64,000 nucleotides of DNA from Ampullaceana balthica. Lineage: Eukaryota > Mollusca > Gastropoda > Lymnaeidae. Shown in pieces: positions 10,336-56,950 of this stretch. The notes beneath the pieces are model-generated. The model did no database searches. It had not been told where the DNA came from and saw nothing but the letters and a program-made list of their open reading frames with translations. Both the position numbers and the translations under genes were made by a program. Every line of letters begins with the position of its first letter. Position 1 is the stretch's first letter. The stretch spans positions 186,001-250,000 of the forward strand of contig CALYLW010000168.1 of the NCBI GenBank assembly GCA_944989445.1. Direction: 5' to 3'.

Positions 10336-10810
10336 TGTTGCGTTCTGGGTTCTGGATAAAAGAAGACTAAGTCTCGACTCTTGTTCACGTATACGTCAAG
10401 CCTTTATTATTCCTCAATATATGTACAGCACTGATTCAGGTACATGACGTACTCCATTCAACAATGACCACTCTCTTTAAGTGCATACATGGACCCTCTG
10501 TCCCTAATACCCTGGACACTCGAGCCACCTCGATGTGTCAACAGCTATCCAGAGCCAACGCTCTATACTCAATGTCTAGCCCTAACAAGGGCTATGGACC
10601 TCTGCACTGGTTAGTCTTCCTACGTCTCTCTTTTCCAGTCTCACACACCCTATTTATCCACGACACGGCTCTCTAACTTGCATACCGGGTGAATACAATT
10701 AACATCCTTATTCACAAGTGAACTCTTGTCACGCACGCCTTGAGCCGACTCACACACTGGCTCACAACAATCTCACAACAATCATTCGCAGTGATTCTCA
10801 TACCCTGACA
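10336..10810 (-). mobile_element. Solo LTR related to the 15576-22755 element
   Basis: Read on the - strand it starts TGTCAGGGTATGAGAATCAC like the intact LTR; the first ~75 bp are close to the 550 bp LTR and the rest is diverged. It ends in ACA. A TATA-like GATAAATAGG (- strand, near 10650) and an AATAAAGG (near 10405) fit U3 and R landmarks. GTTTG occurs at 10331-10335 and again at 10811-10815, a perfect 5 bp duplication. No internal retroelement sequence remains, so it is a recombination product. It belongs to a related subfamily, not the same one. Confidence 0.88.
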
Positions 10811-12590: not shown

Positions 12591-14402
12591 ACGATACTCT
12601 TAGTGGCTAAATGGCGTTACGATACTCTTAGTGGCTAAATGGCGTTACGATACTCTTAGTGGCTAATTGGCGTTACGATACTCTTAGTGGCTAATTGGCG
12701 TTACGATACTCTTAGTGGCTAAATGGCGTTACGATACTCTTAGTGGCTAATTGGCGTTACGATACTCTTAGTGGCTAAATGGCGTTACGATACTCTTAGT
12801 GGCTAAATGGCGTTACGATACTCTTAGTGGCTAATTGGCGTTACGATACTCTTAGTGGCTAAATGGCGTTACGATACTCTTAGTGGCTCAAAGGCGTTAC
12901 GAAACTCTTAGTGGCTCAATGGCGTTACGATACTCTTAGTGGCTCAATGGCGTTACGAAACTCTTAGTGGCTCAATGGCGTTACGATACTCTTAGTGGCT
13001 AAATGGCGTTACGAAACTCTTAGTGGCTAAATGGCGTTACGATACTCTTAGTGGCTAAATGGCGTTACGATACTCTTAGTGGCTAAATGGCGTTACGATA
13101 CTCTTAGTGGCTCAATGGCGTTACGATACTCTTAGTGGCTCAATGGCGTTACGATACTCTTAGTGGCTAATTGGCGTTACGATACTCTTAGTGGCTAAAT
13201 GGCGTTACGATACTCTTAGTGGCTAATTGGCGTTACGAAACTCTTAGTGGCTAAATGGCGTTACGAAACTCTTAGTGTCTCAATGGCGTTACGATACTCT
13301 TAGTGGCTAATTGGCGTTACGAAACTCTTAGTGGCTAAATGGCGTTACGAAACTCTTAGTGGCTAAATGGCGTTACGATACTCTTAGTGGCTAAATGGCG
13401 TTACGATACTCTTAGTGGCTAAATGGCGTTACGATACTCTTAGTGGCTAATTGGCGTTACGATACTCTTAGTGGCTAAATGGCGTTACGATACTCTTAGT
13501 GGCTCAAAGGCGTTACGAAACTCTTAGTGGCTCAATGGCGTTACGATACTCTTAGTGGCTCAATGGCGTTACGAAACTCTTAGTGGCTCAATGGCGTTAC
13601 GATACTCTTAGTGGCTAAATGGCGTTACGAAACTCTTAGTGGCTAAATGGCGTTACGATACTCTTAGTGGCTAAATGGCGTTACGATACTCTTAGTGGCT
13701 AAATGGCGTTACGATACTCTTAGTGGCTCAATGGCGTTACGATACTCTTAGTGGCTAATTGGCGTTACGATACTCTTAGTGGCTAAATGGCGTTACGATA
13801 CTCTTAGTGGCTAATTGGCGTTACGAAACTCTTAGTGGCTAAATGGCGTTACGAAACTCTTAGTGTCTCAATGGCGTTACGAAACTCTTAGTGGCTCAAT
13901 GGCGTTACGATACTCTTAGTGGCTAAATGGCGTTACGAAACTCTTAGTGGCTAAATGGCGTTACGAAACTCTTAGTGTCTCAATGGCGTTACGAAACTCT
14001 TAGTGGCTCAATGGCGTTACGATACTCTTAGTGGCTAAATGGCGTTACGATACTCTTAGTGGCTAAATGGCGTTACGAAACTCTTAGTGTCTCAATGGCG
14101 TTACGAAACTCTTAGTGGCTCAATGGCGTTACGATACTCTTAGTGGCTAAATGGCGTTACGATACTCTTAGTGGCTAAATGGCGTTACGAAACTCTTAGT
14201 GTCTCAATGGCGTTACGAAACTCTTAGTGGCTCAATGGCGTTACGATACTCTTAGTGGCTAAATGGCGTTACGATACTCTTAGTGGCTAAATGGCGTTAC
14301 GAAACTCTTAGTGTCTCAATGGCGTTACGATACTCTTAGTGGCTAAATGGCGTTACGATACTCTTAGTGGCTAAATGGCGTTACGATACTCTTAGTGGCT
14401 AA
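12591..14402. repeat. 28 bp satellite with higher-order structure, ~65 copies
   Basis: The monomer is CGATACTCTTAGTGGCTAAA plus TGGCGTTA. Variants at three sites (GATAC or GAAAC; GGCT or GTCT; AAAT, AATT, CAAT or CAAA) are not random. The rare CTCAAAGG variant occurs at 12887 and 13503, exactly 616 bp (22 monomers) apart with matching neighbours. GTGTCT occurs at 13863, 13975, 14087, 14199 and 14311, each 112 bp (4 monomers) apart. This is a two-level higher-order repeat like those of centromeric satellites, in a short array. No frame stays open. Confidence 0.97.
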
Positions 14403-14494
14403 ACCTGTGTACAACCAACGGGCTGTTTGGCGGATTGAAAGATAATATGACAATAGTGGCAAAAGTGACAATTTCAATCGTGGAATAAGAAGTA

Positions 14495-15099: not shown

Positions 15100-15575
15100 T
15101 AAAATATAAACGTAAAAAACCAAGTTTTTAACTTTAATCCTTTATGTACGAGACGTAACTAAAAGAATGTTCATTATAATACGCAGCGCAAGACCATCCA
15201 AAAATACAAAATTGCAGTTGTGTCGTAAAACATTTTTAATATAATGCGCACCGATCAGGAATATGTTTATAAAAAGCATTCTCAACAAAATACGCATCTT
15301 ATTGCGCGACAGAGAGGTTGTTCAATATAATACACACCGCGACAATCTTATCTAAAAAAAAATAACGTGATACATAGAAATAAAAAAAGGAATCTAAAAA
15401 TTCAATAATTTAGTTACAGTACATGCGATCGATCTGAAATTTTGATACATCGTTTTTATCATCGGCACAAAACTACCTGCACAATTTCAGCTCGCTAGCT
15501 TACAGGGAAGTGGGTTAAAAATCGATCCAAAGTTTTGGCAACAAGCAAATACACAAGCAGACCCCACGAGTTAAT
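15100..15575 (+). repeat. 470 bp repeat family, unit 1, cut by the LTR element
   Basis: Begins with the A-rich AACCAAGTTTTT block and the terminal motif AATCCTTTATGTACGAGAC, contains ATAATACGCAGCGCAAGACC, and stops at CCACGAGTTAAT where the retrotransposon begins. The missing end (ATAAAGGATTTAAT) resumes at 22761 after the element. Confidence 0.88.
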
Positions 15576-16125
15576 TGTCAGGGTATGAGAATCACTGCGA
15601 ATGATTGTGGTGAGATTGTTGTGAGCCAGTGTTGGAGTCGGGTCAAGGCGTTGTTGACGGGTATGAACTCCTATCACGGGAATAATGTCTAGTGATGTCT
15701 GAGTGAACTTCTGGTCACACGGGATATGTCAGGGACATGACCAGAGGACACGCCAGGGTCAGTTGAGACCAGTTGGGGGGTATATAAGAGAGTAGTCGAG
15801 ACGAGTGCGGGGTGTTGCAGAGAGTTGTGTACTTCGCACAGTGTTGTGCGGTCAGACCGGTCAGGATAGACCGGGGAGCTGCAGGGTTGCAGTAAAACAG
15901 AGTTGAGTTTAACGTCGCCCAGAAGCGGTCGGGTCGGACCGAGGGCATGCTTGAGCATACAGCCGTTATATATAGATGTATTTTATGTCAAGGCAAGACA
16001 GCCAGTTGTACAGTTGTTTATAGTAGAATAAACATTGCATCGTTACACAGACTTGTGTCATCTCTTGTGTATGTTGTGTGTAGCGGAGAGCAAGGCACAA
16101 TCCACCTAAACATAGAGACTTAACA
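15576..16125 (+). repeat. 5' LTR
   Basis: Begins TGTCAGGGTATGAG and ends GACTTAACA. A TATA box (TATATAAG, 15781-15788) and a poly(A) signal (AATAAA, 16027-16032) place U3, R and U5 in the usual order. The start motif GATATGTCAGGG also occurs inside the LTR at about 15713. Confidence 0.96.
15781..15788 (+). promoter_or_regulatory. TATA box of the 5' LTR
   Basis: TATATAAG, about 205 bp into the LTR, preceded by a G-run and followed by AGAGTAGTCG. It is the likely core promoter of the genomic transcript. Confidence 0.7.
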
Positions 16126-16143
16126 TGGGGGCCCGAATTGTCT
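16126..16143 (+). other. Primer-binding-site candidate
   Basis: The bases right after the LTR start TGGGGGCCCGAA. TGG is the expected complement of a tRNA CCA end. I could not assign the tRNA from memory. Confidence 0.5.
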
Positions 16144-16928
16144 CTGGATTGCCAAGCACCGCCAAACACTACGAGAGATGGGACGGAACCACATCAGCAC
16201 AGCGGTATGTGCGCCTGTACTTTTCAGTACAGCACCTCTGATACAGACTACTGTATCCATCGTAGGGCATACGTCTTACAACAGCACAACGACGATCAAC
16301 CAGCGACGAACACGGGCAGACAGGGCAACGATCAGCGGATTTCTGATAGACGAGGCCTAGCAAGTCCCAGTACGGAACATTACCAGCCAGAAGACCAACT
16401 ACAAGAGATACCTCGAACCAGAACCAGCAAAACAACGACGTCGGAACCAGCACAGCAACGACGTCTGAACCAGACGGTGCCAACTACGAGAGAAGACGAT
16501 TACAAACGGTACCGGGAGGTCAAGTTGCAGAACCAACCATCCCGCCCCAGCTACAGTGGGACCCTGAGGAGCCGAGACGACCCACAGCACCACAGTTCAA
16601 ATCGGGACAAGTTCGAGAAGATATTCAAGGTGGAGAAAAACATTAATAAGTGACAAGGAAACTGCAAAAAGTGTGACTTTGTGAACTTCTTACGAATGGA
16701 TATTTATTGTGTAATGGGACTTTCATTGTATATGGATATTATGTCTGAAATATAACCCACAGTAAGTACGTACTTAATTACTTATAAAATAGTGTTAAAT
16801 TGGGGAAGTGTGCTATAGCAAGATTGATCTGTTAGATAATATATATAGATATAGCATACCTGTCAGATATAAACGGACAATAAGGGAAGCTAGATTATAA
16901 GTAAGTTGTAAGTTATTGTAGAAGTAGA
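16144..16928 (+). other. Leader region of the LTR element
   Basis: Nearly 800 bp between primer site and the first gag ATG. A + frame at 16138-16653 is open for 171 codons, but it lacks an ATG at its head, is rich in Q, T, P and R, and has no domain. I treat it as untranslated leader. A short TATATATAGATATAG run is near 16840. Confidence 0.55.
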
Positions 16929-17991
16929 ATGGAAACTAGAAGCAGTAGTAAGGGTATAAACATGGACGAGAAATTAGAGTCGTTTAAAAAACAAGGGGAA
17001 AAACTCGCACTCAGAGGGGAGGAACTAGACGAATATGTGAGAGAGCAATGGAAAGATTTTCAAACACAGGAAAGGTTAAGGGAACAGAGAGAGTATGACG
17101 AGAAACAGAGACAGAAAGAAAGGGAGCACGAATTGAAATTGGCAGAAATTAAAAGGAAAGACGTAACTGAACTGGACATGACAGGCCACTCGAGAGAAAA
17201 CAAAGACCTTCGACAAATATTTAAAAAATTTGCAAAAATTCGACGGGTCCCAAGAACTCGACGAATATGTGGCGACATTCGAACATGTAGTGGCTCAGGC
17301 GAAAGTGCCAAAAAGTCAATGGCTGATAGAGCTACAAGTAAGGCTAACGGTTGAGTTACAATCATTCTTAATGACGGAAGACGTTAGGACAAAACTGCAT
17401 GATTATGACACTGTCAAGCGACTCCTTTTGCAACATGCAGGATTTAATGGGGAGAAGTACAGGGAAGCGTGGAATCGTCTAGCACCGGAGAGTAATAATT
17501 TTAGATTATTTCACTCAAAATTGGTTAGAAGTTTAGACAATTGGGTGGCCAGTACAAAAACAGAGAGAACATTTGAGGGGTTGAGGGATTTATTATGTAG
17601 AAACAAGTTATTATTGAACATGAATGAAGAGGCTGTTAAATGCATCCTAATGAATAATGCCCCCAAATGTGAGGACGTACTGACACAAATTGACCATATA
17701 AAGTCGGCAGGACAAGGACAATTAAGTCGGAAAGTCAATACACAGTCACTGGTAGGGGGTGTGGCGGAATATAGGGGTGAATATGGAGGCAAGTCTAGAA
17801 GTCGCTCGACGGAGGGCCGAGTAATGGGTACATGCTTTAACTGTGGTCAGAGGGGTCACATAATGGCCAACTGTCGACAGAAATGGGCCAATAATAGGAT
17901 GCCTGCAAATGCGAAGGGAAATCAGTATAAAAGCTCAGACCAGAAATATAACTATGGAAATAAGTATCCATGGTACAGCCAGGATAGGTGA
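16929..17991 (+). CDS. gag: Gag, in two overlapping frames
   Basis: The N-terminal part (ATG at 16929) is a charged, probably coiled-coil segment rich in E, K, R and Q, ending at 17354. A second frame, open from 17182 to 17991, begins with a KFDGSQELDEY segment typical of Gag of Gypsy elements and carries one zinc knuckle, C202-x2-C205-x4-H210-x4-C215 when counted from 17230. Moving between them needs a one-base shift between about 17182 and 17235, where an A6 run lies. The stop is TGA followed by CTA, a known leaky context, and the same frame stays open for 37 more codons. Either the shift is programmed or the copy (or assembly) has an extra base. Confidence 0.85.
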
Positions 17992-18088
17992 CTAAGCAAA
18001 GATTGCAAACAGGGCCGTACTATACAGTGGCAGGGGTATAAACCTAGAAAAGGGTGGCAGTTTCGCAATACACAATGGGGGGGGAAGT

Positions 18089-21000
18089 ATGAGCGATATT
18101 TTTAGAAAGTCCACGGGTAGGTTAAATGTCGAAAAATGCTTGTTGTTAGGGAAGGAAGCTTCTCTTCTTAGAGACACCGGCTGTACAATCGTAGGGTGCA
18201 GAAAGAGTTTAATACCAAAAAAATACATGACTGATCAGACCTTTACAGTTAAACTTATCGATGGGACAATAAAAACGTTTGAAACTGCTATAGTAGACAT
18301 TAAAACCCCTTATCTCTGCGGTAGATTTTTGTCCGCCCTTTTTGAAGATCCGGTAACAGATGTGATTTTAGGAAATGTTAGATCAGACGAGGACCCACCA
18401 TTCCATCACGGTAACGTAGTTACCAGGGCCCAGAATAAACGAGATAAAGGGGGAGGACCACAAATGAAAACTGTGATTAGTACAATTCCAAAAATATTTG
18501 AACACATCAATTTAGCTGAGGAGCAGGCAAAGGATGGTGGATTAAATAAACTATGGCAAAAAGCTAAAAGTCAGAGGGTGGAAAACACCAAACAAGGAAT
18601 AATAACGTTTGAAATAAACAATAATATACTATACAGGATATTTATTTCTAAAATAGATAACAGTGTTGAAAAAAAATTGGTGATTCCGAAACCATACCGA
18701 CGATTAGTCTTAGAAACGGCTCATACAACAGCATTAGCCGGACACATGTCAGTCAGAAGAACCAAATACAGAATTTTTTCTCAGTATTTCTGGCCACGTA
18801 TGAGCATAGATATCAAGGAATTCATTAAGTCTTGCCCTATTTGCCAAAAAGCACGTCCACCGGGGAGCATAAAACCCATAGAGTTAGGTCAAATGGAAGT
18901 GATCGGAACACCATTTCAGAAGGTTGCTATTGATATCGTAGGGCCATTACAATTAAGTGATAATAAGAATAGATATATCCTTACGTTGGTAGATATGGCT
19001 ACTCGTTGGCCTGAAGCTATTGCGCTAAAAAATATAACAACACAAGACGTTTATGAGGCCCTATTAACAATATTCTCTAGAATGGGATTCCCGGAAGAGA
19101 TCTTGTCAGATAACGGGCCCCAGTTCTCCTCCGATATGTACAAACAGGTGTGTGAATTGTTTAACATAAAATCCAGTCACTCTTCTATTTACCACCCACA
19201 GTCTAACGGGATGGTGGAAAGATTAAATGGCACCCTAAAAAGCATGTTAAGAAAAGTGGCAGATGAGGAACCCAACAATTGGGATAGATTTTTGCCGGCA
19301 ATTTTGTTTGCATATCGGGAAGTTCCGAACGAGACAACGGCAATGTCTCCTTATGAACTCCTCTTCGGGCGAAAAGTGAGAGGACCAATGTCAATTTTAA
19401 GGAAAATACTGACAAATGAAAATACGACAGAGGAAGGTAAAACAACATATGAATATATAATAGACCTCAAAAACAGAATAAAATCAGGGTTATATAAAAC
19501 AGAGGCAATCACGAAAGGAAAGGCAAATAAATATAAACAATATTATGATCAAAGGGCTAGAGAGAAAGATATACAAATTGGTGACAAAGTGCTCGTGTTG
19601 AAACCTAAAAAAGGAAATAAACTCGCTCTGTATTCAGAAGGTCCATTCACCGTCACGAGAAAATTATCGAAATTTAATGTAGAGATTGCGAAGGGACATA
19701 AGCGTATAGTTTATCACCTCAACAGATTAACAAAATTTGTCGAAAATAACATGGATAACACAGATGCGAACTTATCGGCAGCAGAGAAAAATGAAAAGAC
19801 AATTAATGGTGCCAGTGCCACAGTGATAGCCGAAGAAGAAGAGGAAGATGTAAATAGTGAAGACATTAAGCAAATTCCGTTAATCAACGTCAAGGTTAAT
19901 TCAGGCATTGACATTAATAAGGAACTAACGGAGACACAGAAAAGACAAGTTGACGATATGGTGCAAGAGTACAAAGAAATCATTTCAGATATCCCAGGGA
20001 AAACATCGGCGGGTACGCACAAAATAGAATTATTAGACTCTAAGCCCATTAACGTAAAACCTTATGCAATACCTATACATATGATTCAAAGTCTAAAAGA
20101 AGAGATTAGTATGATGTTAGAACTAGGTATAATCGAGGAATCACAGTCACCATATTGCTCTCCCTTAGTTTTAATTAAGAAAAAAGATGGATCGATTCGG
20201 ACTTGCGTGGATTATAGAAAATTGAACGCAATTACAAAAAAAGTAGCAGAAGTTATACCTAACCAGGATAAACTTCTAGAACACATGAATAAAGCCAAAT
20301 ACTTTACGAAACTAGACTTAACAAAGGGATATTGGCAAATACCTCTTGAGGAGAAAAGCAAAGAATACACAGCTTTTCAAGGCCCAGACGGGGCATATCA
20401 ATATAACTTTATGCCATTCGGATTGGCAACCGCACCGGCAACGTTCAATAAAATTGTTAAGAAATTATTCAAAGGAGTAAAAGAGGTAGTTACTTATTTT
20501 GACGATATCTGTGTATACACAGACGACTGGGAGTCACATATACGAGTTACTCGAGAGGTTTTAGAGATTTTGAAAAAGGCAGGGTTCACCATTAAACCAT
20601 CTAAGTTAGAAATAGGTAAAGAATCAATCGAATTTCTGGGACATAGAATTGGAGCAGGCATCTTAAAACCAGACATGAACAATATAAACAAAGTGTTGGA
20701 AATAGAACGACCCAAAAATAAGAGACAAGTAAGGGGACTAGTTGGCCTAATAGCGTATTACAATAAATTTATACCTAATTTTTCAACGATAACAGCCCCA
20801 TTGACGGACCTTACAAAGAAAGGTAAACCTAATAATATATGTTGGACTAAGGAATGCCAACAAGCATTGGATACAATCCAAAACTATTTAACAAATAACC
20901 CCATTTTGGTTCTGCCCGACATTAAGGAACCCTTTATAGTTCGTACAGATGCGTCAACGAAGGGATTGGGGGCATGTTTGATGCAGAAGAGAGACAATAT

Positions 21001-21313
21001 GCTCCACCCGGTTAAATATATTAGTCGTAAACTGGTTGACAGGGAAACTAGATACTCAACAATAGAGAGGGAATGCTTGGCAATAATATGGGGAATTCAG
21101 AAATTATCCTACTATTTAATGGGGGCAAGATTTACGCTCCAGTGTGACCACCAAGCGTTAAAATATTTGAACACGACTAAATTTGAAAATTCAAGAGTTT
21201 CCAGGTGGTCTTTGATGTTACAGGAATACGATTTCAACGTGGAATACATTAAAGGTGAAGATAACATTATTGCAGATTTTTTTATCTCGGCAATAAGCAG
21301 ATATGGCAGCTGA
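18089..21313 (+). CDS. pol: Pol: protease, integrase, reverse transcriptase, RNase H
   Basis: 1,074 codons from the ATG; the frame is open back to 17996. Protease: D29-T-G and a VILG motif at 92-95. Integrase: zinc motif H212, H219, C249, C252; catalytic D282, D341, E377 (35 residues between the last two); then a GPF module at 518-520. An acidic linker lies near 582-592. RT: first aspartate D743 in LDLTKGYW, then Y803-F-D-D806. RNase H: D954, E993, D1020. All key residues are present. In ordinary Gypsy elements integrase follows RNase H; here it precedes RT, as in Copia and Gmr1-like elements. No chromodomain is seen. The pol frame is one base off the gag frame, with a G8 run at 18077-18084 in the overlap. 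Confidence 0.96.
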   Translation: MSDIFRKSTGRLNVEKCLLLGKEASLLRDTGCTIVGCRKSLIPKKYMTDQTFTVKLIDGTIKTFETAIVDIKTPYLCGRFLSALFEDPVTDVILGNVRSDEDPPFHHGNVVTRAQNKRDKGGGPQMKTVISTIPKIFEHINLAEEQAKDGGLNKLWQKAKSQRVENTKQGIITFEINNNILYRIFISKIDNSVEKKLVIPKPYRRLVLETAHTTALAGHMSVRRTKYRIFSQYFWPRMSIDIKEFIKSCPICQKARPPGSIKPIELGQMEVIGTPFQKVAIDIVGPLQLSDNKNRYILTLVDMATRWPEAIALKNITTQDVYEALLTIFSRMGFPEEILSDNGPQFSSDMYKQVCELFNIKSSHSSIYHPQSNGMVERLNGTLKSMLRKVADEEPNNWDRFLPAILFAYREVPNETTAMSPYELLFGRKVRGPMSILRKILTNENTTEEGKTTYEYIIDLKNRIKSGLYKTEAITKGKANKYKQYYDQRAREKDIQIGDKVLVLKPKKGNKLALYSEGPFTVTRKLSKFNVEIAKGHKRIVYHLNRLTKFVENNMDNTDANLSAAEKNEKTINGASATVIAEEEEEDVNSEDIKQIPLINVKVNSGIDINKELTETQKRQVDDMVQEYKEIISDIPGKTSAGTHKIELLDSKPINVKPYAIPIHMIQSLKEEISMMLELGIIEESQSPYCSPLVLIKKKDGSIRTCVDYRKLNAITKKVAEVIPNQDKLLEHMNKAKYFTKLDLTKGYWQIPLEEKSKEYTAFQGPDGAYQYNFMPFGLATAPATFNKIVKKLFKGVKEVVTYFDDICVYTDDWESHIRVTREVLEILKKAGFTIKPSKLEIGKESIEFLGHRIGAGILKPDMNNINKVLEIERPKNKRQVRGLVGLIAYYNKFIPNFSTITAPLTDLTKKGKPNNICWTKECQQALDTIQNYLTNNPILVLPDIKEPFIVRTDASTKGLGACLMQKRDNMLHPVKYISRKLVDRETRYSTIERECLAIIWGIQKLSYYLMGARFTLQCDHQALKYLNTTKFENSRVSRWSLMLQEYDFNVEYIKGEDNIIADFFISAISRYGS

Positions 21314-22190
21314 TTGGTTAGATATTTACATCAAAATTCGGTCGAGTTACGGCGACCAGGGGATAGAGGGGGGACTAATTTGGGTAGAAATTGAGGTCTG
21401 AGTCACCTCGGGCCAGTATTATTATTATATGAACATGATTGTAAGGTTTCATAGCGATTATGTACTTATGTTAGTTAGTACTTACGGATGGTTGTAAATA
21501 AATATGAGATGGTTGTATTTTCGTGCTGATGTTTTTTATTATAATTTTTGGCCCCGGGTGACCTCGGGCAAAATTTCATTATAAGGAGATGTAATTATTT
21601 ATATATATATATATATATTTATGAAATTATGAGATATGATGATAATGATTTTGTTCATGATTATGAGTATTATGATGCATTATGTTGATTACGACTACTA
21701 TATGCACATGATTGTTATATAATTGATTGTAATGGGTTAAATACAATCAGGCTGAAATGTCTATAGTTGGGATAAGTAGTTATCCCTATAACATTATCTC
21801 ATGCTGGAGGTAATCCTGGAATAAATATCTTAAGGAATTTATATGAGGAACCAGTAGAGTCAGTTGGTAAATAGAAAACAATCTAGCGTAAAAATTGTCA
21901 ATTGTTGGATACTAATATGTGAGGTGTTATGACCAGTAGTAGGTCGAAGGTTGGTTCTTGATAATGATAACGTACGAGTTGCGGGTTAGTGAAGTCGTAT
22001 AAAGGTACGACCAAGTGGATTTATGCTCTGTGTTGTATATACTAGTGTTTTTTTCCTGCAATGTTGTGTATAAAATTATTTTGAAAGATATTATTTCATT
22101 ATGTATTATATTATTGTAATTGTAATGTGCAGTGATTCCATGCCCTGACTTTGTTGTATTGTGAGATTCTACCCGTAAGTAGAATCTAAC
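21314..22190 (+). other. Non-coding 3' region of the LTR element
   Basis: About 880 bp between pol and the polypurine tract, with a (TA)n run at 21600-21619 and two CTCGGG-containing segments near 21405 and 21565. No env-like frame with signal peptide or membrane segment was found. Confidence 0.7.
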
Positions 22191-22203
22191 GGAAGAGGGG
22201 GGA
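22191..22203 (+). other. Polypurine tract
   Basis: GGAAGAGGGGGGA ends two bases before the 3' LTR, the expected place for plus-strand priming. Confidence 0.85.
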
Positions 22204-22205
22204 TA

Positions 22206-22755
22206 TGTCAGGGTATGAGAATCACTGCGAATGATTGTGGTGAGATTGTTGTGAGCCAGTGTTGGAGTCGGGTCAAGGCGTTGTTGACGGGTATGAACTC
22301 CTATCACGGGAATAATGTCTAGTGATGTCTGAGTGAACTTCTGGTCACACGGGATATGTCAGGGACATGACCAGAGGACACGCCAGGGTCAGTTGAGACC
22401 AGTTGGGGGGTATATAAGAGAGTAGTCGAGACGAGTGCGGGGTGTTGCAGAGAGTTGTGTACTTCGCACAGTGTTGTGCGGTCAGACCGGTCAGGATAGA
22501 CCGGGGAGCTGCAGGGTTGCAGTAAAACAGAGTTGAGTTTAACGTCGCCCAGAAGCGGTCGGGTCGGACCGAGGGCATGCTTGAGCATACAGCCGTTATA
22601 TATAGATGTATTTTATGTCAAGGCAAGACAGCCAGTTGTACAGTTGTTTATAGTAGAATAAACATTGCATCGTTACACAGACTTGTGTCATCTCTTGTGT
22701 ATGTTGTGTGTAGCGGAGAGCAAGGCACAATCCACCTAAACATAGAGACTTAACA
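22206..22755 (+). repeat. 3' LTR
   Basis: Same 550 bp length as the 5' LTR, offset by 6,630 bases; I see no substitution. TATA box at 22411-22418 and AATAAA at 22657-22662. Followed by the TTAAT duplication. Confidence 0.96.
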
Positions 22756-24220
22756 TTAATATAAAGGATTTAATAATTTTTTTTTAAAAACGTAAAATAA
22801 AAAAACCCTTAAAAAACCAAGTTTTTCACTATAAATCCTTTATGTACTAGACGTAACTAAAAGAATAATCATTATAATACGCAGCGCAAGACCATCCACA
22901 AATACAAAATTGCAGTTGTGTCGTAAAACATGTTTAACATAATGCACACCGATCAGGAATATGTTTATAAAAAGAGTTGACAATAAAATACGCCCCTAAT
23001 TGCGCGACAGAAAGGTTGTTCAATATAATACGCACCGCGACACTCTGTCTCAAAAAATAACATGATACATAGGAATAAATAAAATAATCTAAAAATTCAA
23101 AAATTTAATTACGGTACATGCGATCGATCTGAAATTTTGATACATAGTTTTTATCATCGCCACGAAACTGCCTGCTAAACTTCAGCTCGCTAGATTACGA
23201 GAAAGTGGGTTAAAAATCTATCAAAAGTTTTGGCGACAAGGGCGCAGACACCACGAGTTAATATAAAGGATTTAAAAACAAGTTTTTGACTTTAATCCTT
23301 TATGTACGAAACATAACTAAAAGAATGTTCATTATAATACGCAGCGCAAGACCACCCTAAAATACAAAATTGCAGTTGTGTCGTAAAACATGTTTAATAT
23401 AATGTGCACCGATCAGGAATATATTTATAAAAAGTGTTGTCAATAAAATACGCACCTTATTGCGCGACAGAAAGGTCGTTCAATATAATACGCACCGCGA
23501 CACAATAGCAATAAAATTGAACATGATACATAGAGATAAAATAAAATAATCTAAAAATTCAATAATTTAATTACAGTACATGCGATCGATCTAAAATTTT
23601 GATACATTGTTGCTATCATCGGTACGAAACTGTCTGCAAAATTTCAACTCGCTAGCTTACAAGAAAGTGGGTTAAAAATCGATCCAAAATTTTGGCGACA
23701 AGCAAGGGCGCAAGGAGACACCAAGACTTAATATAAAGGATTTTTTTTTAAACTTAAAAAACCAAGTTTTTTACTATAAATCGTTTATGTACGAGACGTA
23801 TCTAAAAGAATGTTCATTATAATACGCAGCGCAAGACCATCCAAAAATACAAAATTGCAGTTGCGTCGTAAAACATGTTTAATATAATGCGCACCGATCA
23901 GAAATATGTTTATAAAAAGCATTCTCAATAAAATACGCACCTTATTGCGCGACAGAAAGGCTGTTCAATATGATACGCACCGCGACACTCTATCTCAAAA
24001 AATAACATGATACATAGAGATAAATAAAATAATCTAAAAATTCAATAATTTAATTACGGTACATGCGATCGATCTGAAATTTTGATACACCGTTTTTATC
24101 ATCGGTACGAAATTTTAGCTCCCTAGCTTACGAGAAAGTGGGTTAAAATCGATCCAAAGTTTTGGCGACAAGCAAGCAAACAATCAACCAAACAGAAACC
24201 ACGAGTTAATATAAAGGATG
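22756..24220 (+). repeat. 470 bp repeat family, tandem units 2-4
   Basis: The end of unit 1 (22756-22775) is followed by three units at about 22776-23274, 23275-23741 and 23742-24220. Each runs from an AATCCTTTATGTACGA start (AATCGTTTATG in unit 4) to a TTAATATAAAGGAT end. Shared internal blocks are ATACGCAGCGCAAGACCA, ACATGCGATCGATCT and GTGGGTTAAAA. Start and end motifs are inverted copies of each other. No coding frame. Confidence 0.88.
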
Positions 24221-32795: not shown

Positions 32796-32868
32796 TGTTT
32801 TCGCTGGGGCTTGAACCCAGGACCTTCCGCGTGTAAGGCGGACGTTATAACTAGTACACTACGAATCT
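32796..32868 (-). pseudogene. tRNA-Val (TAC) pseudogene
   Basis: On the - strand the anticodon arm is TCCGC-CTTACAC-GCGGA and the T arm is CTGGG-TTCAAGC-CCCAG, both perfectly paired; the anticodon is TAC. The acceptor stem pairs at only four of seven positions (outer three mismatch), so it is probably a pseudogene or a young tRNA-derived repeat. B box GGTTCAAGCCC is intact. Confidence 0.8.
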
Positions 32869-33572: not shown

Positions 33573-34647
33573 GATCAGACTTGCATCAAGTGAAACACAT
33601 TCAAGTCTCCATCAGACTTGCATCAAGTGAAACACATTCAAGTCTCCATCAGACTTGCATCAAGTGAAACACATTCAAGTCTCCATCAGACTTGCATCAA
33701 GTGAAACACATTCAAGTCTCCATCAGACTTGCATCAAGTGAAACACATTCAAGTCTCCATCAGACTTGCATCAAGTGAAACACATTCAAGTCTCCATCAG
33801 ACTTGCATCAAGTGAAACACATTCAAGTCTCCATCAGACTTGCATCAAGTGAAACACATTCAAGTCTCCATCAGACTTGCATCAAGTGAAACACATTCAA
33901 GTCTCCATCAGACTTGCATCAAGTGAAACACATTCAAGTCTCCATCAGACTTGCATCAAGTGAAACACATTCAAGTCTCCATCAGACTTGCATCAAGTGA
34001 AACACATTCAAGTCTCCATCAGACTTGCATCAAGTGAAACACATTCAAGTCTCAATCAGACTTGCATCAAGTGAAACACATTCAAGTCTCCATCAGACTT
34101 GCATCAAGTGAAACACATCCAAGTCTCCATCAGACTTGCATCAAGTGAAACACATTCAAGTCTCCATCAGACTTGCATCAAGTGAAACACATCCAAGTCT
34201 CCATCAGACTTGCATCAAGTGAAACACATCCAAGTCTCCATCAGACTTGCATCAAGTGAAACACATCCAAGTCTCCATCAGACTTGCATCAAGTGAAACA
34301 CATTCAAGTCTCCATCAGACTTGCATCAAGTGAAACACATCCAAGTCTCCATCAGACTTGCATCAAGTGAAACACATTCAAGTCTCCATCAGACTTGCAT
34401 CAAGTGAAACACATTCAAGTCTCCATCAGACTTGCATCAAGTGAAACACATTCAAGTCTCCATCAGACTTGCATCAAGTGAAACACATTCAAGTCTCCAT
34501 CAGACTTGCATCAAGTGAAACACATCCAAGTCTCCATCAGACTTGCATCAAGTGAAACACATTCAAGTCTCCATCAGACTTGCATCAAGTGAAACACATT
34601 CAAGTCTCCATCAGACTTGCATCAAGTGAAACACATTCAAGTCTCCA
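33573..34647. repeat. Minisatellite, 37 bp unit, 29 copies, near identical
   Basis: The unit is CATCAGACTTGCATCAAGTG plus AAACACATTCAAGTCTC. Almost the only variant is CATCC for CATTC; it is absent from the first ~14 units and clustered between about 34110 and 34530. Confidence 0.98.
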
Positions 34648-48815: not shown

Positions 48816-48954
48816 CAGTAACTCAAAGATTCTATTTCATTCAAATTTAACGTCTATGCTGGTTCAATATGTACCTTATGAACTTTGTCAATATTGTAGA
48901 TACTCAACATCTGTCAAAAGTTAAACTGTCTCATACTCAAAGGTCATCTCAGCC

Positions 48955-50340
48955 AACACTGTGTCTAACACTAACACCACCACATCTCAGCCAACACTGT
49001 GTCTAACACTAACACCACCACACCTCAGTCAACACTAACACCAGCACACCCCAGTCAACACTGTGTCTAACACTAACACCAGCACACCCCAGTCAACACT
49101 GTGTCTAACACTAACACCACCACACCCCAGTCAACACTGTGTCTAACACTAACACCACAGCCAACATTGTGTCTAACACTAACACCAGCACACCCCAGTC
49201 AACACTGTGTCTAACACTAACACCACCACACCCCAGTCAACACTGTGCCTAACACTAACACCACCACACCACAGCCAACACTGTGTCTAACACTAACACC
49301 ACCACACCCCAGCCAACACTGTGTCTAACACTAACACCACCATACCCCAGCCAACACTGTATCTAACACTAACACCACCACACCCCAGCCAACACTGTGT
49401 CTAACACTAACACCCCCACACCCCAGTCAACACTGTGTCTAACACTAACACCACCACACCTCAGTCAACACTCTGTCTAACACTAACACCACCACACCCC
49501 AGCCAACACTGTGTCTAACACCACCACACAACAACACCTCAGCCAACACTGTGTCTAACACTAACACCACCACACCCCAGCCAACACTGTGTCTAACACT
49601 AACACCACCACACCCCAGCCAACACTGTGTCTAACACTAACACCACCACACCCCAGCCAACACTGTGTCTAACACTAACACCACCACACCCCAGCCAACA
49701 CTGTGTCTAACACTAACACCACCACACCCCAGCCAACACTGTGTCTAACACCACCACAAAACAACACCTCAGCCAACACTGTGTCTAACACTAACACCAC
49801 CACACCCCAGCCAACACTGTGTCTAACACTAACACCACCACACCCCATCCAACACTGTGTCTAACACTAACACCACCACACCCCAGCCAACACTGTTTCT
49901 AACACTAACACCACCACATCCCAGCCAACACTGTATCTAACACTAACACCACCACACCCCAGCCAACACTGTGTCTAACACTAACACCCCAGTCAACACT
50001 GTGTCTAACACTAACACCACCACACCTCAGTCAACACTGTGTCTAACACTAACACCACCACACCCCAGCCAACACTGTGTCTAGCACCACCACACAACAA
50101 CACCTCAGCCAACACTGTGTCTAACACTTACACCACCACACCCCAGCCAACACTGTCTAACACCACCACCTCAGCCAACACTGTGTCTAACATTAACACC
50201 TCCACACCCCAGCCAACACTGTGTCTAACACTAACACCACCACACCCCAGCCAACACTGTGTCTAACACTAACACCACCACACCCCAGCCAACACTGTGT
50301 CTAACACCACCACACAACATCACCTGAGTCAAGAGTGTCT
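48955..50340. repeat. Minisatellite, 38 bp unit, about 36 copies
   Basis: CCAGCCAACACTGTGTCTAA plus CACTAACACCACCACACC. Shortened units (CACCACCACACAACAACACC) recur at about 49519, 49750, 50080 and 50305, so a longer block was probably duplicated. One strand is almost free of G outside GTGTC. Confidence 0.97.
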
Positions 50341-51174
50341 AACACTACCACAAAATATCACTTCGGCCAACAGTGTGTTTGACACATCATCACCTCAACC
50401 AACAGTGTGTTTAACACTACCACACATTACCTCATCTTTTCCTTGTCTGGAAAGTTTATGACAAAATCTTTGTACATTACTGCAATACATATTTGAATAA
50501 TTTATAATTACATTGTTTGTTACAATTTTTTAATTTTTTTTTACAAACTAGAAATATGTAATGGACTCCTTAAAAAGATTTGCAATTTTGCCAAAGATTA
50601 TTTACAAACCATTCATTATACAGACTTTATTTAAAGTGTTATTTGTACAGATTTGTTTTTCTCATTTCATTTCTTCATGATGTGAAGATTGACCTCTTCA
50701 TTTATCAACAATTTAAGTCAATATTACCTACAATTTCAATTACAATTTACTTTCAGTTTTGACCACTTTTAAAGTGGAATAAATTTTGGTCCCTTTTTCA
50801 TAAGTCATTTATTGTTGATCTTAGAGGTTGTTTTCTTATGTGCATACATGATATAATAGAAGTGTTTTCTGATTTTTTAAATTGAAATACCTTTTTAAAT
50901 TTTAATGTTATTTAGAATCATTTGGAATTTGTACTTTGATCCTGGTGCCTTTGCTTACAGTTTGATTTAATTCACTTTCAAAGCTGTAATGTGATTTTTG
51001 AGGGTTGTACAATTCTTCATTAATTGAATGTGCTTACAATGTAATATTAAAATTGATTTCTATTCATCAATACAACTTCTACATTTAAAAAAAAATTTTT
51101 TATTTAATTATTAACCAAACTGTTGAAGACAATATTCATATGTACACTAACTAGTTGCATTCCTGACTCTGACA
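50341..51174. other. AT-rich intergenic DNA, nothing recognised
   Basis: No gene or repeat found. Confidence 0.45.
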
Positions 51175-52582: not shown

Positions 52583-55500
52583 CTGTTGAAAAATAAAGCT
52601 ACAATTAATTTTAGAATAATTTTGTTTTTAATATAACACATGCAGGGGCTTAGCAGAGTATCAACTGGTCTTGCCTAAAGATTACTAATATTTTAAAATA
52701 TAATTAAGCTTTTTTTTTAAATAACTTTTTAAAATCATAAATACTCTTTTGTACTTAACACTTTCCCCATATGCTTGACAAACTAATAAAACTAGTTAAA
52801 AGTTTGTAAAATTGATAAACTATATGTAAGTAAACAAATTATATTTGTTGAAAAACACTAAATATATTTAATGTCACATTGTTAAGACCGCTCATATTTG
52901 AGGACCGGTTGACTGTTTTAAAAAACGCTGGTTAACCAGTATTTGTTTCTACTATTAGCATTAGCCAACACACTCGCACACTCCCGCTGCAGGTGGCATA
53001 TCAAAGGTGCTTTGATGTACGCCACACTTGTTAGCTCTTGTACCCAATGGTCAGCAACCAATGTTCCCTCTAATTACTCTAATGGTCAGCAACCAATGTT
53101 CCCTCTAATTACATGAACAATGTTCCCTCTAATTACATGAACAATCTTTGTAGTCAATTAACTTTCATAAAAGAGAATAATAGAAATGCAGTTCTATGGA
53201 TTATGGGGGACTTTAATCTTCCAGATATAAATTGGAAAAATTATACAATTGATAACCATCAAACTAACAAAGAAATTAATGAACACTTCCTAGACACTAT
53301 AAACAACATAAACCTAGAACAGATAGTAAAAAACAGCAACAAGGAAAAATAAAACACTAGATTTATTCCTAACAAATAGACCAGGACTAGTGTTAGACTA
53401 TAAAATAATTCCAGGACTGTCCGACCATGATATTGTTAGGGTCACCAATACAATAAAAACTAAAATTAATAAGGTACCTAGAAGAATAATCTATCTTTGG
53501 AATAAATGTAATTCAATAAAACTACACCAATCAGCGGCTAACTTCCAACAAACTTTCCTAAGTAAATTTAACACAAATAGCCCAGTAGAAGAAATTTGGA
53601 AAGATATAAAAACAAATCTAAAAACTATAATGGATGAGAATGTTCCAACAAAACTAACATCAAATAAAATTAACAAATGCTGGTTCAATTCTAGATTGAA
53701 AAAGCTATGCAAACTAAAAGAGAACTTATTTAAGAAATATAAAGCTACCAATTCATATAGGATACACAAAAAATACTTAAAGATTAAACACTTGACACAA
53801 AAACTTAGTCGGAACCTCCAAAATGAATATATAAACAATGTAATTACCAAAGATAACAATAAAAACTTATGGTCCTTTATCAAATCTAAAAAAATGGAAC
53901 CTTCAGGAATAGCCACACTAAAAGGCTCAAATAATAAAACCTATAATGATAATGAAACTAAAGCTAATATCCTTAACACATATTTTGCATCATCTTTTTC
54001 TGCCTCAGGCGACAAGGAAGTTTTAATAAATTTAAATAAAATGGAGGAAATAGGTAACATAACTGTAGATGAGATAGGTATACATTCACTCCTAAAAAAC
54101 TTAAAAATAAACAAAGCTACTGGCCCAGATGATTTGCCTGCAAGATTATTAAAAGAACTAAGCAATGAACTGTCCCCAATCCTTGTAGTTCTCTTTCAAG
54201 CCTCTCTAAACCAGGGTAAAGTGCCCCAGGATTGGAAATTAGCTAATGTAAGTCCACTCTTTAAGAAAGGGGATAAATCAGACCCTGGTAATTACAGGCC
54301 TGTATCACTTACTAGTATCACCTGTAAATTACTAGAACACATAATATATAGTAGAATAGTTAATAACCTTGACAAATATAATGCCCTATGCCCACATCAA
54401 CACGGCTTTAGAAAAAACAGATCATGTGAAACACAATTAATAGGTTTAATAGATGAACTATCAAAAGGCTTGGACAAAAATGACCAAATAGATACAATAT
54501 TACTAGACTTCTCAAAAGCATTTGACAAAGTTCACCACCTTAGTTTACTTAAAAAAACTTAACTACTTTGGAATCTCAGGTTCCTTACATCACTGGATCC
54601 AAGACTTCCTTTTGGGCAGGGAGCAAACTGTAATAATTAATGGATCTAAATCTGCACCAATAAAGGTTAACTCAGGAGTTCCACAAGGAACTGTGCTAGG
54701 TCCCTTACTCTTTTTAATTTATATAAATGATTTACCCAACAACATCTCAACAGGTACAAAAGTTAGGCTATTTGCTGATGATTGTATAATCTATAGAACA
54801 ATTAAATCAGAACAAGATAGCAAAATTTTACAAAAAGACTTAGATGAATTGATAAAATGGGAAACTAACTGGAGTATGTCTTTCCATCCAGAAAAGTGTC
54901 AACTGTTAAGAGTAACAAAGAAAAAGAAACAAATAAATTCAAAATATTACATTCATGGAAAAGAACTGACCCAAACTAAAGATGCAAAATACTTAGGAGT
55001 CTTAATAAATGAGAAACTATCATGGAATCCCCATGTCAATGAAGTTATTAAAAAATCAAACAAAACCTTAGGCTTTATAAAAAGGAACTTTAACAAATGT
55101 AATAGAGATATAAAACTAAAATGCTACCTCACTTTGGTGAGACCTGCACTAGAATATGCATCTTCTGTATGGGACCCATCCACCAAAGAAAACATTGATA
55201 AACTAGAACAAATTCAAAAAAGAGCTGCCAGATTCATTACTGGAGAATATTCGAAACTGACAAGAGTAACACCATTAGTTAAATCATTAAACCTTGAAAC
55301 ACTAGAGGATAGAAGAACCAAGAGCAAAGTAGTAATCATACATAAAGCAATTAATTCTAATTTAGAAATACAACACAAAGATAACTTAATACAACCCTCA
55401 GATAGACATAAGGATAAAAACACCTTTCTTATTCCGTATGCAAGAACAAACACATACAAGTTTTCCTTCTTCCCGTCCGGAATTCGGGCGTGGAATGGGT

Positions 55501-56950
55501 TGCCTGAAGAATCCAGGAAAACCAACACTTTATCAACATTTAAATCTCTGATAAAAATGCAGGACTAAACACAAACCATAGATAAGCGTAGGACGCAATA
55601 ATCTTCTGTATAGAAGGAGCGTCTGTAAACAGATAAGATAAGATAATTACTCTAATGGTCAGCAACCAATGTTCCCTCTAATTACTCTAATGGTCAGCAA
55701 CCAATGTTCCCTCTAGTTACTCTAATGGTCAGCAACCAATGTTCCCTCTAATTACTCTAATGGTCAGCAACCAATGTTCCCTCTAATTACTCTAATGGTC
55801 AGCAACCAATGTTCCCTCTAATTATTCTAATGGTCAGCAACCAATGTTCCCTCTAATTACTCTACTTTAAAAAATTTGAACGTTTAAATTATTTTTTAAC
55901 GATTAATCGACCCATCACTTACAAATTATTGGAAGTCAAAAAGTAAAAAAATAATAAAAAATAGCGGCCGATAAATAATAAATTTCCTGACAATTACACG
56001 AACATTTTGGTTTTTAAACTATTGACTGATGGGAATGTTCAAAATGTTGATAAAGTTTGCCTACCATGGTTCGTCTACTTATCAAACCAAATGAAAAGCG
56101 CATTAAGCTAATGAACTAATGGCAGTTATGGAGTCAGATTCAGAGACAGAAAATGACGACAGCTCTTCTGATGAATTACTGCGTTACAAAATGGAGATGA
56201 AAGTTCCTGAATCCATTATCATTAACTCTGTACAATGGTGGAAACTTAATGAACACCAATATCCGATAATGCCATTCCTTGTCAAGACCGTATTGTGCAT
56301 ACCAGTTACCTCAGTTCCATGTGAATGATTGTTCAGCTGGCTGGTTATATTGTCAATTTGACCCAGTCATCACTTGAACCAAATAAAGTTAACACACTTG
56401 TCTTTTTGCGTAGTTGGTTAAAAGATGACATATAAAGGAGACATTCCAGTGTTATTTATATTTCAACAAGAACGTTTAATCAGTGTTACTTATGACATCA
56501 TAAATTTTAATCTTTGGCTTTAATCGAAAATAAACTATTAATTGTTAATTTTTCAAAAGTTAACTATTAAATTTAAATTAACTGTTAACAGCCCTAATTT
56601 ATGAACATTACTTTATTTTGTATATAGATGGGGATATCAACAGTAGAGCAGAACAAGTTTTGACTTTGAAACTTACAGTGAAAACAAAAACAAACTTAAA
56701 CTTGGCACTTTTTAAATGTCAATTATTTTTTACTATGATTTTTTAAAAATTTATTATAATTTAAAATATAGTTATTTTTTTAAAATTTTAATATTATAAG
56801 ACTCACCCTTTTTTTGATAGACACATATGTAAGAAAAGAAACTGGCAAGACCAACAAAGAAAATGCAATTGCTGCAGATTTAAATGTTCCTTTGAATCGT
56901 TCAGCTTGGGTAGCTTTTAATGCAATAAACCTTTGTACAGCTGGATCAAA
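52511..56950 (-). CDS. NDUFB4: NDUFB4 (complex I B15 subunit), last two exons, partial
   Basis: Exons 56950-56807 (48 codons) and 52582-52511 (23 codons plus stop) join in phase 0 to the last 71 residues. The order FDPAVQRF, a region with FKGTFKSA, a hydrophobic membrane segment (FSLLVLPVSFLTYVSI), then KKRDYDEKRYRNGEVMYKDR follows NDUFB4 of animals (a VFD-x3-QRF start, one membrane helix, then a charged K-R-E-rich C-terminus). NDUFB4 is an accessory subunit of the proton-pumping arm of mitochondrial complex I. Splice sites are TTTTTTCAG / GTGAGT and TTTTTCAACAG. The N-terminal exon(s) should lie at higher coordinates; I could not find them. The intron has taken in a LINE, a minisatellite and a dead hAT gene. 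Confidence 0.82.
52600..53039. other. NDUFB4 intron, left part
   Basis: AT-rich intronic sequence with no further feature recognised. Confidence 0.45.
53040..53136. repeat. 35 bp minisatellite, part left of the LINE
   Basis: Units of ATGGTCAGCAACCAATGTTC plus CCTCTAATTACTCTA. The last two units before the LINE are shortened to CATGAACAATGTTCCCTCTA plus ATTA. The array continues at 55644 after the LINE. Confidence 0.9.
53137..55568 (+). pseudogene. LINE ORF2-type protein: endonuclease end and reverse transcriptase
   Basis: Read in three consecutive frames. Frame 1 (to 53351) has the end of an APE-type endonuclease, GDFNLPDINW. Frame 2 (to 54562) has SDHD from the endonuclease end, then RT motifs ATGPDDLPARLL, NYRPVSLTS, QHGFRKNRS and LLDFSKAFDKV. 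Frame 3 (from 54545) has GVPQGTVLGPLLF, the catalytic FADD (from 54771), a C-terminal LVRPALEYASSVWDP segment and GLPEESR. Each frame change is explained by one extra A in a run (A5 near 53345, A7 at 54549-54555). The 5' part, ORF1 and most of the endonuclease are missing. Confidence 0.93.
53137..55643 (+). mobile_element. 5'-truncated LINE (CR1/Jockey-like) in a minisatellite
   Basis: 2.5 kb, beginning inside the endonuclease domain and ending in a short AGATAA tail. TAATTAC lies on both sides (53130-53136 and 55644-55650), a 7 bp duplication, although the array itself contains this word. The 3' untranslated part is about 75 bp. Fragments of the same family are at 5670, 26775 and 44388 in this window. 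Confidence 0.92.
55644..55862. repeat. 35 bp minisatellite, part right of the LINE
   Basis: About six further units, nearly identical, each containing CAATGTTCCCTCTAATTA, which resembles the terminus of the hAT family at 25473-39887. Confidence 0.93.
56119..56435 (+). pseudogene. Decayed hAT transposase, C-terminal dimerisation region
   Basis: The frame from 56119 reads through an acidic stretch into WWKLNEHQYPIMPFLVKTVL and TSVPCE, matching the hAT dimerisation motif (WW-x-yP-x-la, then TSvp-ER-FS). The expected arginine codon is TGA here (56326-56328), then LFSW follows, and after a frame change NLTQSSLEPNKVNTLVFL completes the domain up to TAA at 56435. The catalytic part is absent. A possible right terminus (TTAACAGCCCTAA) lies near 56588-56600. 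Confidence 0.83.
56807..56950 (-). CDS. NDUFB4: NDUFB4 penultimate exon
   Basis: Acceptor CATTTTTTCAG, donor AGG|GTGAGT, 144 bases, phase 0 at both ends. Encodes FDPAVQRFIALKATQAERF and the membrane segment. Confidence 0.84.

What the first reader, a model, noticed from the sequence alone, without database searches (positions are those of the whole stretch)
18089..21313. Gypsy-type pol with integrase placed before reverse transcriptase
The single frame carries D29-T-G protease, HHCC and D282-D341-E377 integrase with a GPF module, then YFDD reverse transcriptase and an RNase H with D954, E993, D1020. RT and integrase motifs are Gypsy-like (GPF module, YFDD), but the order is that of Copia. Established knowledge: only the small Gmr1-like group is known for this, first described in deuterostomes. 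A copy in what looks like a mollusc would extend or reinforce its range. That this is a mollusc is inference.
Basis: partly seen in the sequence, partly recalled or inferred. Interest (0 to 1): 0.85.

Follow-up and report, generated by a model that had tools for sequence, protein, structure and literature searches.

The report
Integrase-first Gypsy retrotransposon in snail-like genome
This is a young, complete copy of a jumping gene of the Gypsy type whose enzymes are encoded in an unusual order (integrase before reverse transcriptase); the order is real, but it most likely belongs to an already described lineage that is found in many invertebrates.

Summary
Window 15576-22755 is one complete LTR retrotransposon insertion: two identical 550-bp LTRs, a 5-bp target duplication, and a pol ORF that reads protease - integrase - reverse transcriptase - RNase H. 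RT and integrase are Ty3/Gypsy-type; the best solved structure, Ty3 Gag-Pol, matches in two blocks in swapped order. It is no assembly join: 42 further pol matches at 99-100% identity were scored elsewhere in the genome, and a second, distant integrase-first family gave 118 scored matches. All 120 listed homologues (of 1178 found) have this order. In separate RT and integrase trees the integrase-first rows lie on one side of one branch, the window near Physella and Biomphalaria proteins. The family's Gag is homologous to the SCAN-bearing Gags of that group. So it works like, and most likely is, a Gmr1-like element, although Gmr1 itself was not compared. The group is neither small nor confined to deuterostomes. 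A less usual detail: in this family gag and pol are split by UGA-CUA, a readthrough context. New member of a known kind.

The parts
15571..15575 (.). target-site duplication TTAAT, left
   Evidence: same five bases at 22756-22760
15576..16125 (+). 5' LTR, 550 bp, TG...CA
   Evidence: 100% identical to 22206-22755
16126..16136 (+). putative primer-binding site (starts TGGGGG directly after the LTR); primer tRNA not identified
   Evidence: position only
16929..17354 (+). first part of gag in this copy (N-terminal)
   Evidence: gag is split over two frames in this copy and lies in one frame in other copies
17182..17991 (+). second part of gag: capsid region and one CCHC zinc knuckle (about 17827-17880)
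   Evidence: matches Gags of integrase-first relatives by tblastn
17989..17994 (+). gag stop UGA followed by CUA, a known readthrough context
   Evidence: context from PMC4973966
17996..21313 (+). pol open frame (first ATG 18089)
18170..18184 (+). protease motif RDTGC
18722..18844 (+). integrase zinc finger H212-H219-C249-C252
18932..19219 (+). integrase catalytic D282, D341, E377
19640..19648 (+). integrase C-terminal GPF motif
20087..20656 (+). reverse transcriptase (YFDD)
20840..21235 (+). RNase H
21314..22205 (+). 3' untranslated region; no env-like frame (longest stop-to-stop stretch 47 codons on +, 92 on -)
22191..22205 (+). polypurine tract directly before the 3' LTR
   Evidence: position and composition
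22206..22755 (+). 3' LTR, 550 bp
22756..22760 (.). target-site duplication TTAAT, right

Best explanation
A recently inserted LTR retrotransposon of the Ty3/Gypsy superfamily, of the integrase-first (Gmr1-like) lineage, in a probably gastropod genome. Shown from sequence: paired LTRs, target duplication, polypurine tract, Gag with zinc knuckle, and Pol ordered protease - integrase - RT - RNase H, in many near-identical copies. Inferred: transcription from the LTR; Gag made from the first frame; Gag-Pol made by occasional readthrough of the UGA-CUA stop between gag and pol; cleavage by the protease; tRNA-primed reverse transcription; and insertion by the integrase with 5-bp staggered cuts. The order of enzymes in the polyprotein differs from ordinary Gypsy, but the life cycle should be the same. 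This particular copy has gag split over two frames and pol displaced from it, and is probably not autonomous; copies with gag open and in frame with pol exist in the genome.
For: Identical LTRs and TSD. Domain order by Pfam, by own HMMs and by PDB: Ty3 Gag-Pol 7q5b matches as query 625-1068 to Ty3 561-1009 and query 194-551 to Ty3 1086-1445, i.e. swapped. 43 pol matches at 99-100% identity in the genome, the window's included, 40 of 43 without a stop inside (only 43 of 4763 first-look candidates were scored). Of the 21 copies examined, 9 have both LTRs aligned from base 1 and free flanks: 8 of 9 have a perfect 5-bp TSD, 1 shares 4 bases. LTR pairs of 18 of 21 copies differ by 0-0.94% in substitutions, median 0.19%, 5 with none (two of these 5 have gap columns). 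Order: 120 of 120 listed homologues integrase-first; control set from a Ty3 query 116 of 120 RT-first. Trees: 31 integrase-first against 37 RT-first rows, one branch, support 97/84 (integrase) and 100/100 (RT-RNase H); holding the window with the RT-first rows is rejected (p-AU 2.5e-10 and 3e-73). Second integrase-first family in the same genome. Gag of copy L015 matches a profile of 88 Gags of the group, and the window's own second gag piece matches such Gags by tblastn, best 2.5e-11.
Against: Gmr1 and the named animal Gypsy clades (Mag, Mdg1, CsRn1) were not compared by sequence, so the clade name rests on papers, domain order and deuterostome proxies. The RT-first rows are fungal, plant, algal and unnamed proteins and unnamed eukaryote-like contigs in bacterial records. 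The family's Gag has no Pfam SCAN hit. No RNA structure supports readthrough (z +0.80). The UGA-CUA is present in 20 of 21 copies, but these copies are too young for that to show selection. One protein inside the gastropod branch, P0020 of Biomphalaria, is a 1360-residue model with Gag (SCAN) and Pol fused, so the split is not seen throughout that branch. With all 87 rows the support of the integrase branch was 87 (SH-aLRT).
Confidence: 0.93

Rival explanations
1. The order is a local rearrangement or an assembly join.
For: None found; the flanks are repetitive, which is where assemblies can fail.
Against: 42 further pol matches at 99-100% identity on other contigs, a single open frame, TSDs on both sides, a second family with the same order, and 120 of 120 listed relatives.
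Confidence: 0.01
2. A Copia element, or a chimera with a Copia integrase and a Gypsy RT.
For: The gene order is that of Copia.
Against: RVT_1, RT_RNaseH and Integrase_H2C2 match; no Copia-type model is among the 8 families listed. Integrase and RT both match Ty3 best among solved structures. Both trees put the window among the same integrase-first relatives. No Copia rows were in the trees.
Confidence: 0.01
3. An integrase-first Gypsy lineage of protostomes that rearranged independently of Gmr1.
For: Gmr1 itself could not be placed; the second family in this genome is the first to branch off among the integrase-first rows of the integrase tree and has no close sister in the RT tree.
Against: Deuterostome integrase-first proteins (Patiria, Lytechinus, Diadema, Holothuria) fall inside the same clade in both trees. 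SCAN-bearing Gags are common in the group (66 of 120 listed homologues carry PF02023, my count), and papers tie SCAN to Gmr1-like Gag (PMC4592553; PMC4131045).
Confidence: 0.06

Closest known systems
Gmr1-like Ty3/Gypsy elements (Goodwin and Poulter 2002, seen only as a reference entry; content as cited in passages of PMC6238403, PMC3587641 and PMC8220671)
   Same: Gypsy-type RT and integrase, integrase upstream of RT, Gag related to SCAN-bearing Gags
   Different: host probably a gastropod; gag and pol split by a UGA stop in this family; Gmr1 itself was not compared by sequence
Ty3 of yeast (PDB 7q5b, 4ol8)
   Same: homologous RT-RNase H and integrase
   Different: integrase lies after RNase H
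Copia elements
   Same: order protease - integrase - RT - RNase H (recalled, and as stated in PMC6238403)
   Different: domain families are Gypsy-type, not Copia-type
Biomphalaria glabrata and Physella acuta proteins P0013-P0015, P0017, P0020, P0044
   Same: same order, 44-50% identity over 87-98% of the query
   Different: other families; named only as uncharacterized or K02A2.6-like proteins; P0020 has Gag fused to Pol

Membership tests
LTR retrotransposon | paired LTRs with TG...CA ends, target duplication, polypurine tract | tested here: met
LTR retrotransposon | primer-binding site matching a host tRNA | tested here: inconclusive
   a TGGGGG start follows the 5' LTR, but no tRNA was matched or searched for in the genome
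Ty3/Gypsy superfamily | Gypsy-type RT, RNase H and integrase | tested here: met
Gmr1-like group | integrase upstream of RT in one pol frame | tested here: met
Gmr1-like group | RT and integrase each in one clade with other integrase-first elements | tested here: met
   proxies only, with deuterostome rows inside the clade
Gmr1-like group | groups with Gmr1 itself | not tested
   no Gmr1 sequence was at hand; none appeared under that name in the lists
Gmr1-like group | Gag homologous to the SCAN-bearing Gags of the group | tested here: met
   Gag of copy L015 against a profile of 88 Gags, E 1e-46 for one target; BLASTP down to 2e-22
Gmr1-like group | recognisable SCAN domain in Gag | tested here: inconclusive
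Ty1/Copia superfamily | Copia-type RT and integrase families | tested here: not met

The most novel reading that the evidence does not exclude
Integrase-first Gypsy elements are one old and abundant lineage of bilaterian animals rather than a small deuterostome group. Within it some gastropod families have turned a fused Gag-Pol into Gag - UGA-CUA - Pol, so that Pol is made by stop-codon readthrough.
Probability: 0.42. Interest if true: 0.45.

Novelty: new member of a known kind. Interest (0 to 1): 0.32.

Why it matters
It shows a well-preserved, recently multiplied integrase-first Gypsy family in what is probably a snail, plus a second such family in the same genome. I found no paper in the open-access library that states this order for molluscs. 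It gives material for asking when the domain order changed, whether it changed once, and how Gag:Pol ratios are set when integrase comes first.

Tried and rejected
Assembly join, Copia identity and Gypsy/Copia chimera were tested and rejected (see rivals). An RNA structure after the gag stop that might help readthrough was not found. In viral contigs no relatives were found with the pol protein or an RT alignment; a full-length alignment gave 7 weak integrase-core matches of 25-32% identity, not pursued. A first Gag model with 5 rows was poor (pLDDT 54) and was not searched. In the window's gag and leader pieces Pfam found only the zinc knuckle at a significant E-value. ARAGORN found no tRNA in the window. 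Host identity was not tested with a host gene.

Rows dropped before counts. The first tree had 87 rows: the window, the second family, 30 of the 120 homologues picked by hand for named or spread hosts, 11 of the 120, and 44 of the 68 loci. The later trees had 68 of these 87; 19 were dropped by hand as near-duplicates or long branches after the first tree was seen. Of the 68 loci, 55 have integrase after RT (two of them composite), 11 show no integrase, L087 has only a weak distant piece before RT, and L095 is integrase-first. Of the Ty3-query set 4 of 120 were not RT-RH-IN (2 without integrase, 1 RT-IN-RH, 1 RH-RT).

Papers: 11 were opened, all as passages; in addition section 6 of PMC6238403, the discussion of PMC8220671 and the abstract of PMC12440569. 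Other listed papers were not opened.

Full report
What is there. The window element runs from 15576 to 22755. Its two LTRs are 550 bp long, identical, and begin TG and end CA; TTAAT flanks it on both sides. A TGGGGG stretch follows the 5' LTR and a purine-rich tract precedes the 3' LTR. Between them lie gag, then pol, then 892 bp without an env-like frame.

Domain order. Pfam gives Integrase_H2C2, rve, then RVT_1 and RNase H. Against solved structures the best sequence is Ty3 Gag-Pol (7q5b), which matches in two blocks in swapped order. A home-made order caller found integrase - RT - RNase H in 120 of 120 listed homologues of the window protein (1178 were found, only the best 120 are listed), and RT - RNase H - integrase in 116 of 120 listed homologues of Ty3, so the caller is not biased to one answer. 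The first set was ranked by similarity over the whole protein and so favours the same order; the count shows how widespread the order is, not its frequency among all Gypsy elements.

Not a join. The genome holding the window (1.1 Gb, 3363 contigs) gave 43 scored pol matches at 99-100% identity, the window's own included, 40 of 43 without an internal stop. Among these 20 and the window, 18 have two LTRs over 500 bp, with 0-0.94% substitutions. Eight of the nine copies whose LTR ends could be read with free flanks have perfect 5-bp duplications. In L013 the element has inserted into another Gypsy element, whose integrase lies on one side and RT on the other. That second family gave 118 scored matches and, in L036, one 1512-residue Gag-Pol frame with the same order.

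Trees. Integrase and RT-RNase H were treed apart with 31 integrase-first and 37 RT-first rows. In both, the two orders are split by one branch (97/84 and 100/100). The window sits with P0002, P0003 and P0005 and then in a branch with Physella and Biomphalaria proteins (drawings). Echinoderm, tick, shrimp, brachiopod and bivalve rows lie in the same clade. One contig in a bacterial record, L095 (a Thiodubiliella assembly; another record of that genus names a Bathymodiolus mussel symbiont), is integrase-first and groups with bivalve rows, so it is probably host DNA. The RT-first rows do not include named animal clades, because the request that would have listed other Gypsy elements of this genome did not complete.

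How Pol may be made. In 13 of 21 copies the stop of gag is a UGA in the pol frame, 99 bases before the pol ATG; in 11 of 21 gag is open over 288 codons or more in that same frame. UGA CUA AGC is present in 20 of 21 copies. In 7 of 21 copies, the window's among them, gag and pol are in displaced frames; L017 shows neither the junction nor a Gag match. UGA CUA is a known readthrough context (PMC4973966, passages). A split seems older than this family: P0001-P0019 all start within, after or shortly before the protease, though some may be truncated models, while 88 of the 117 homologues with a recognised protease have over 280 residues before it. The Gag search found P0243 (51% identity), on a contig of the same length and source as the pol P0002, so probably the same contig. 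Against this, P0020 of Biomphalaria lies in the same branch and is a fused Gag-Pol model; whether that model skips a stop is unknown. I infer readthrough. Restart at the pol ATG or splicing is not excluded, and no helper structure was seen.

What is known. Gmr1-like elements are described as Gypsy elements with integrase upstream of RT. They are reported from deuterostomes, from four crustacean elements called the first in protostomes (PMC3587641) and from one annelid family (PMC8220671). The background of an annelid study counts Gmr1 among five clades found in several phyla (PMC8556966, passages). The large mollusc survey mentions the order but lists no Gmr1 clade; it lists Cigr-1 and 16 new MolGy clades, some of which may be integrase-first (PMC6238403, passages and section 6). 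I found no paper that states integrase-first Gypsy elements in molluscs, by the searches in an open-access library only; most listed papers were not opened.

Verdict. It is a good new member of a known lineage, with a gag-pol stop codon as the most interesting detail.

Noticed in passing
window 10336-10810 (-): A solo LTR with a 5-bp duplication (CAAAC) inserted in a 29-bp minisatellite; it matches the LTRs of copy L028 at 94%.
   Followed up: partly
L028 against window 15576-22755: L028 has a pol 99.6% identical to the window's but LTRs that share only the first 76 bp with it: two LTR types on nearly the same interior, which suggests LTR exchange between families.
   Followed up: partly
L010: Looks like a tandem arrangement LTR - interior - LTR - interior - LTR.
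   Followed up: no
L013 1-795 and 7990-9605; L036 123-4661 (-): A second integrase-first family in the same genome with one fused Gag-Pol frame and 118 scored matches.
   Followed up: yes
window 15103-15575 and 22809-24176: The element sits in a tandem-like repeat of about 460 bp, copies 86-93% alike.
   Followed up: no
window 53330-55568 (+): A reverse transcriptase of RVT_1 type split over two frames, probably a decayed LINE.
   Followed up: no
window, 12591-14403, 33574-34647, 48950-50351 and others: Many long tandem arrays (16 rows with score 300 or more).
   Followed up: no
window 32800-32865 (-): tRNA-like match of 39.9 bits in Rfam, not called by ARAGORN.
   Followed up: no
L037-L104: 68 contigs in bacterial and archaeal genome records hold Gypsy-type RT, probably eukaryotic contamination.
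   Followed up: partly
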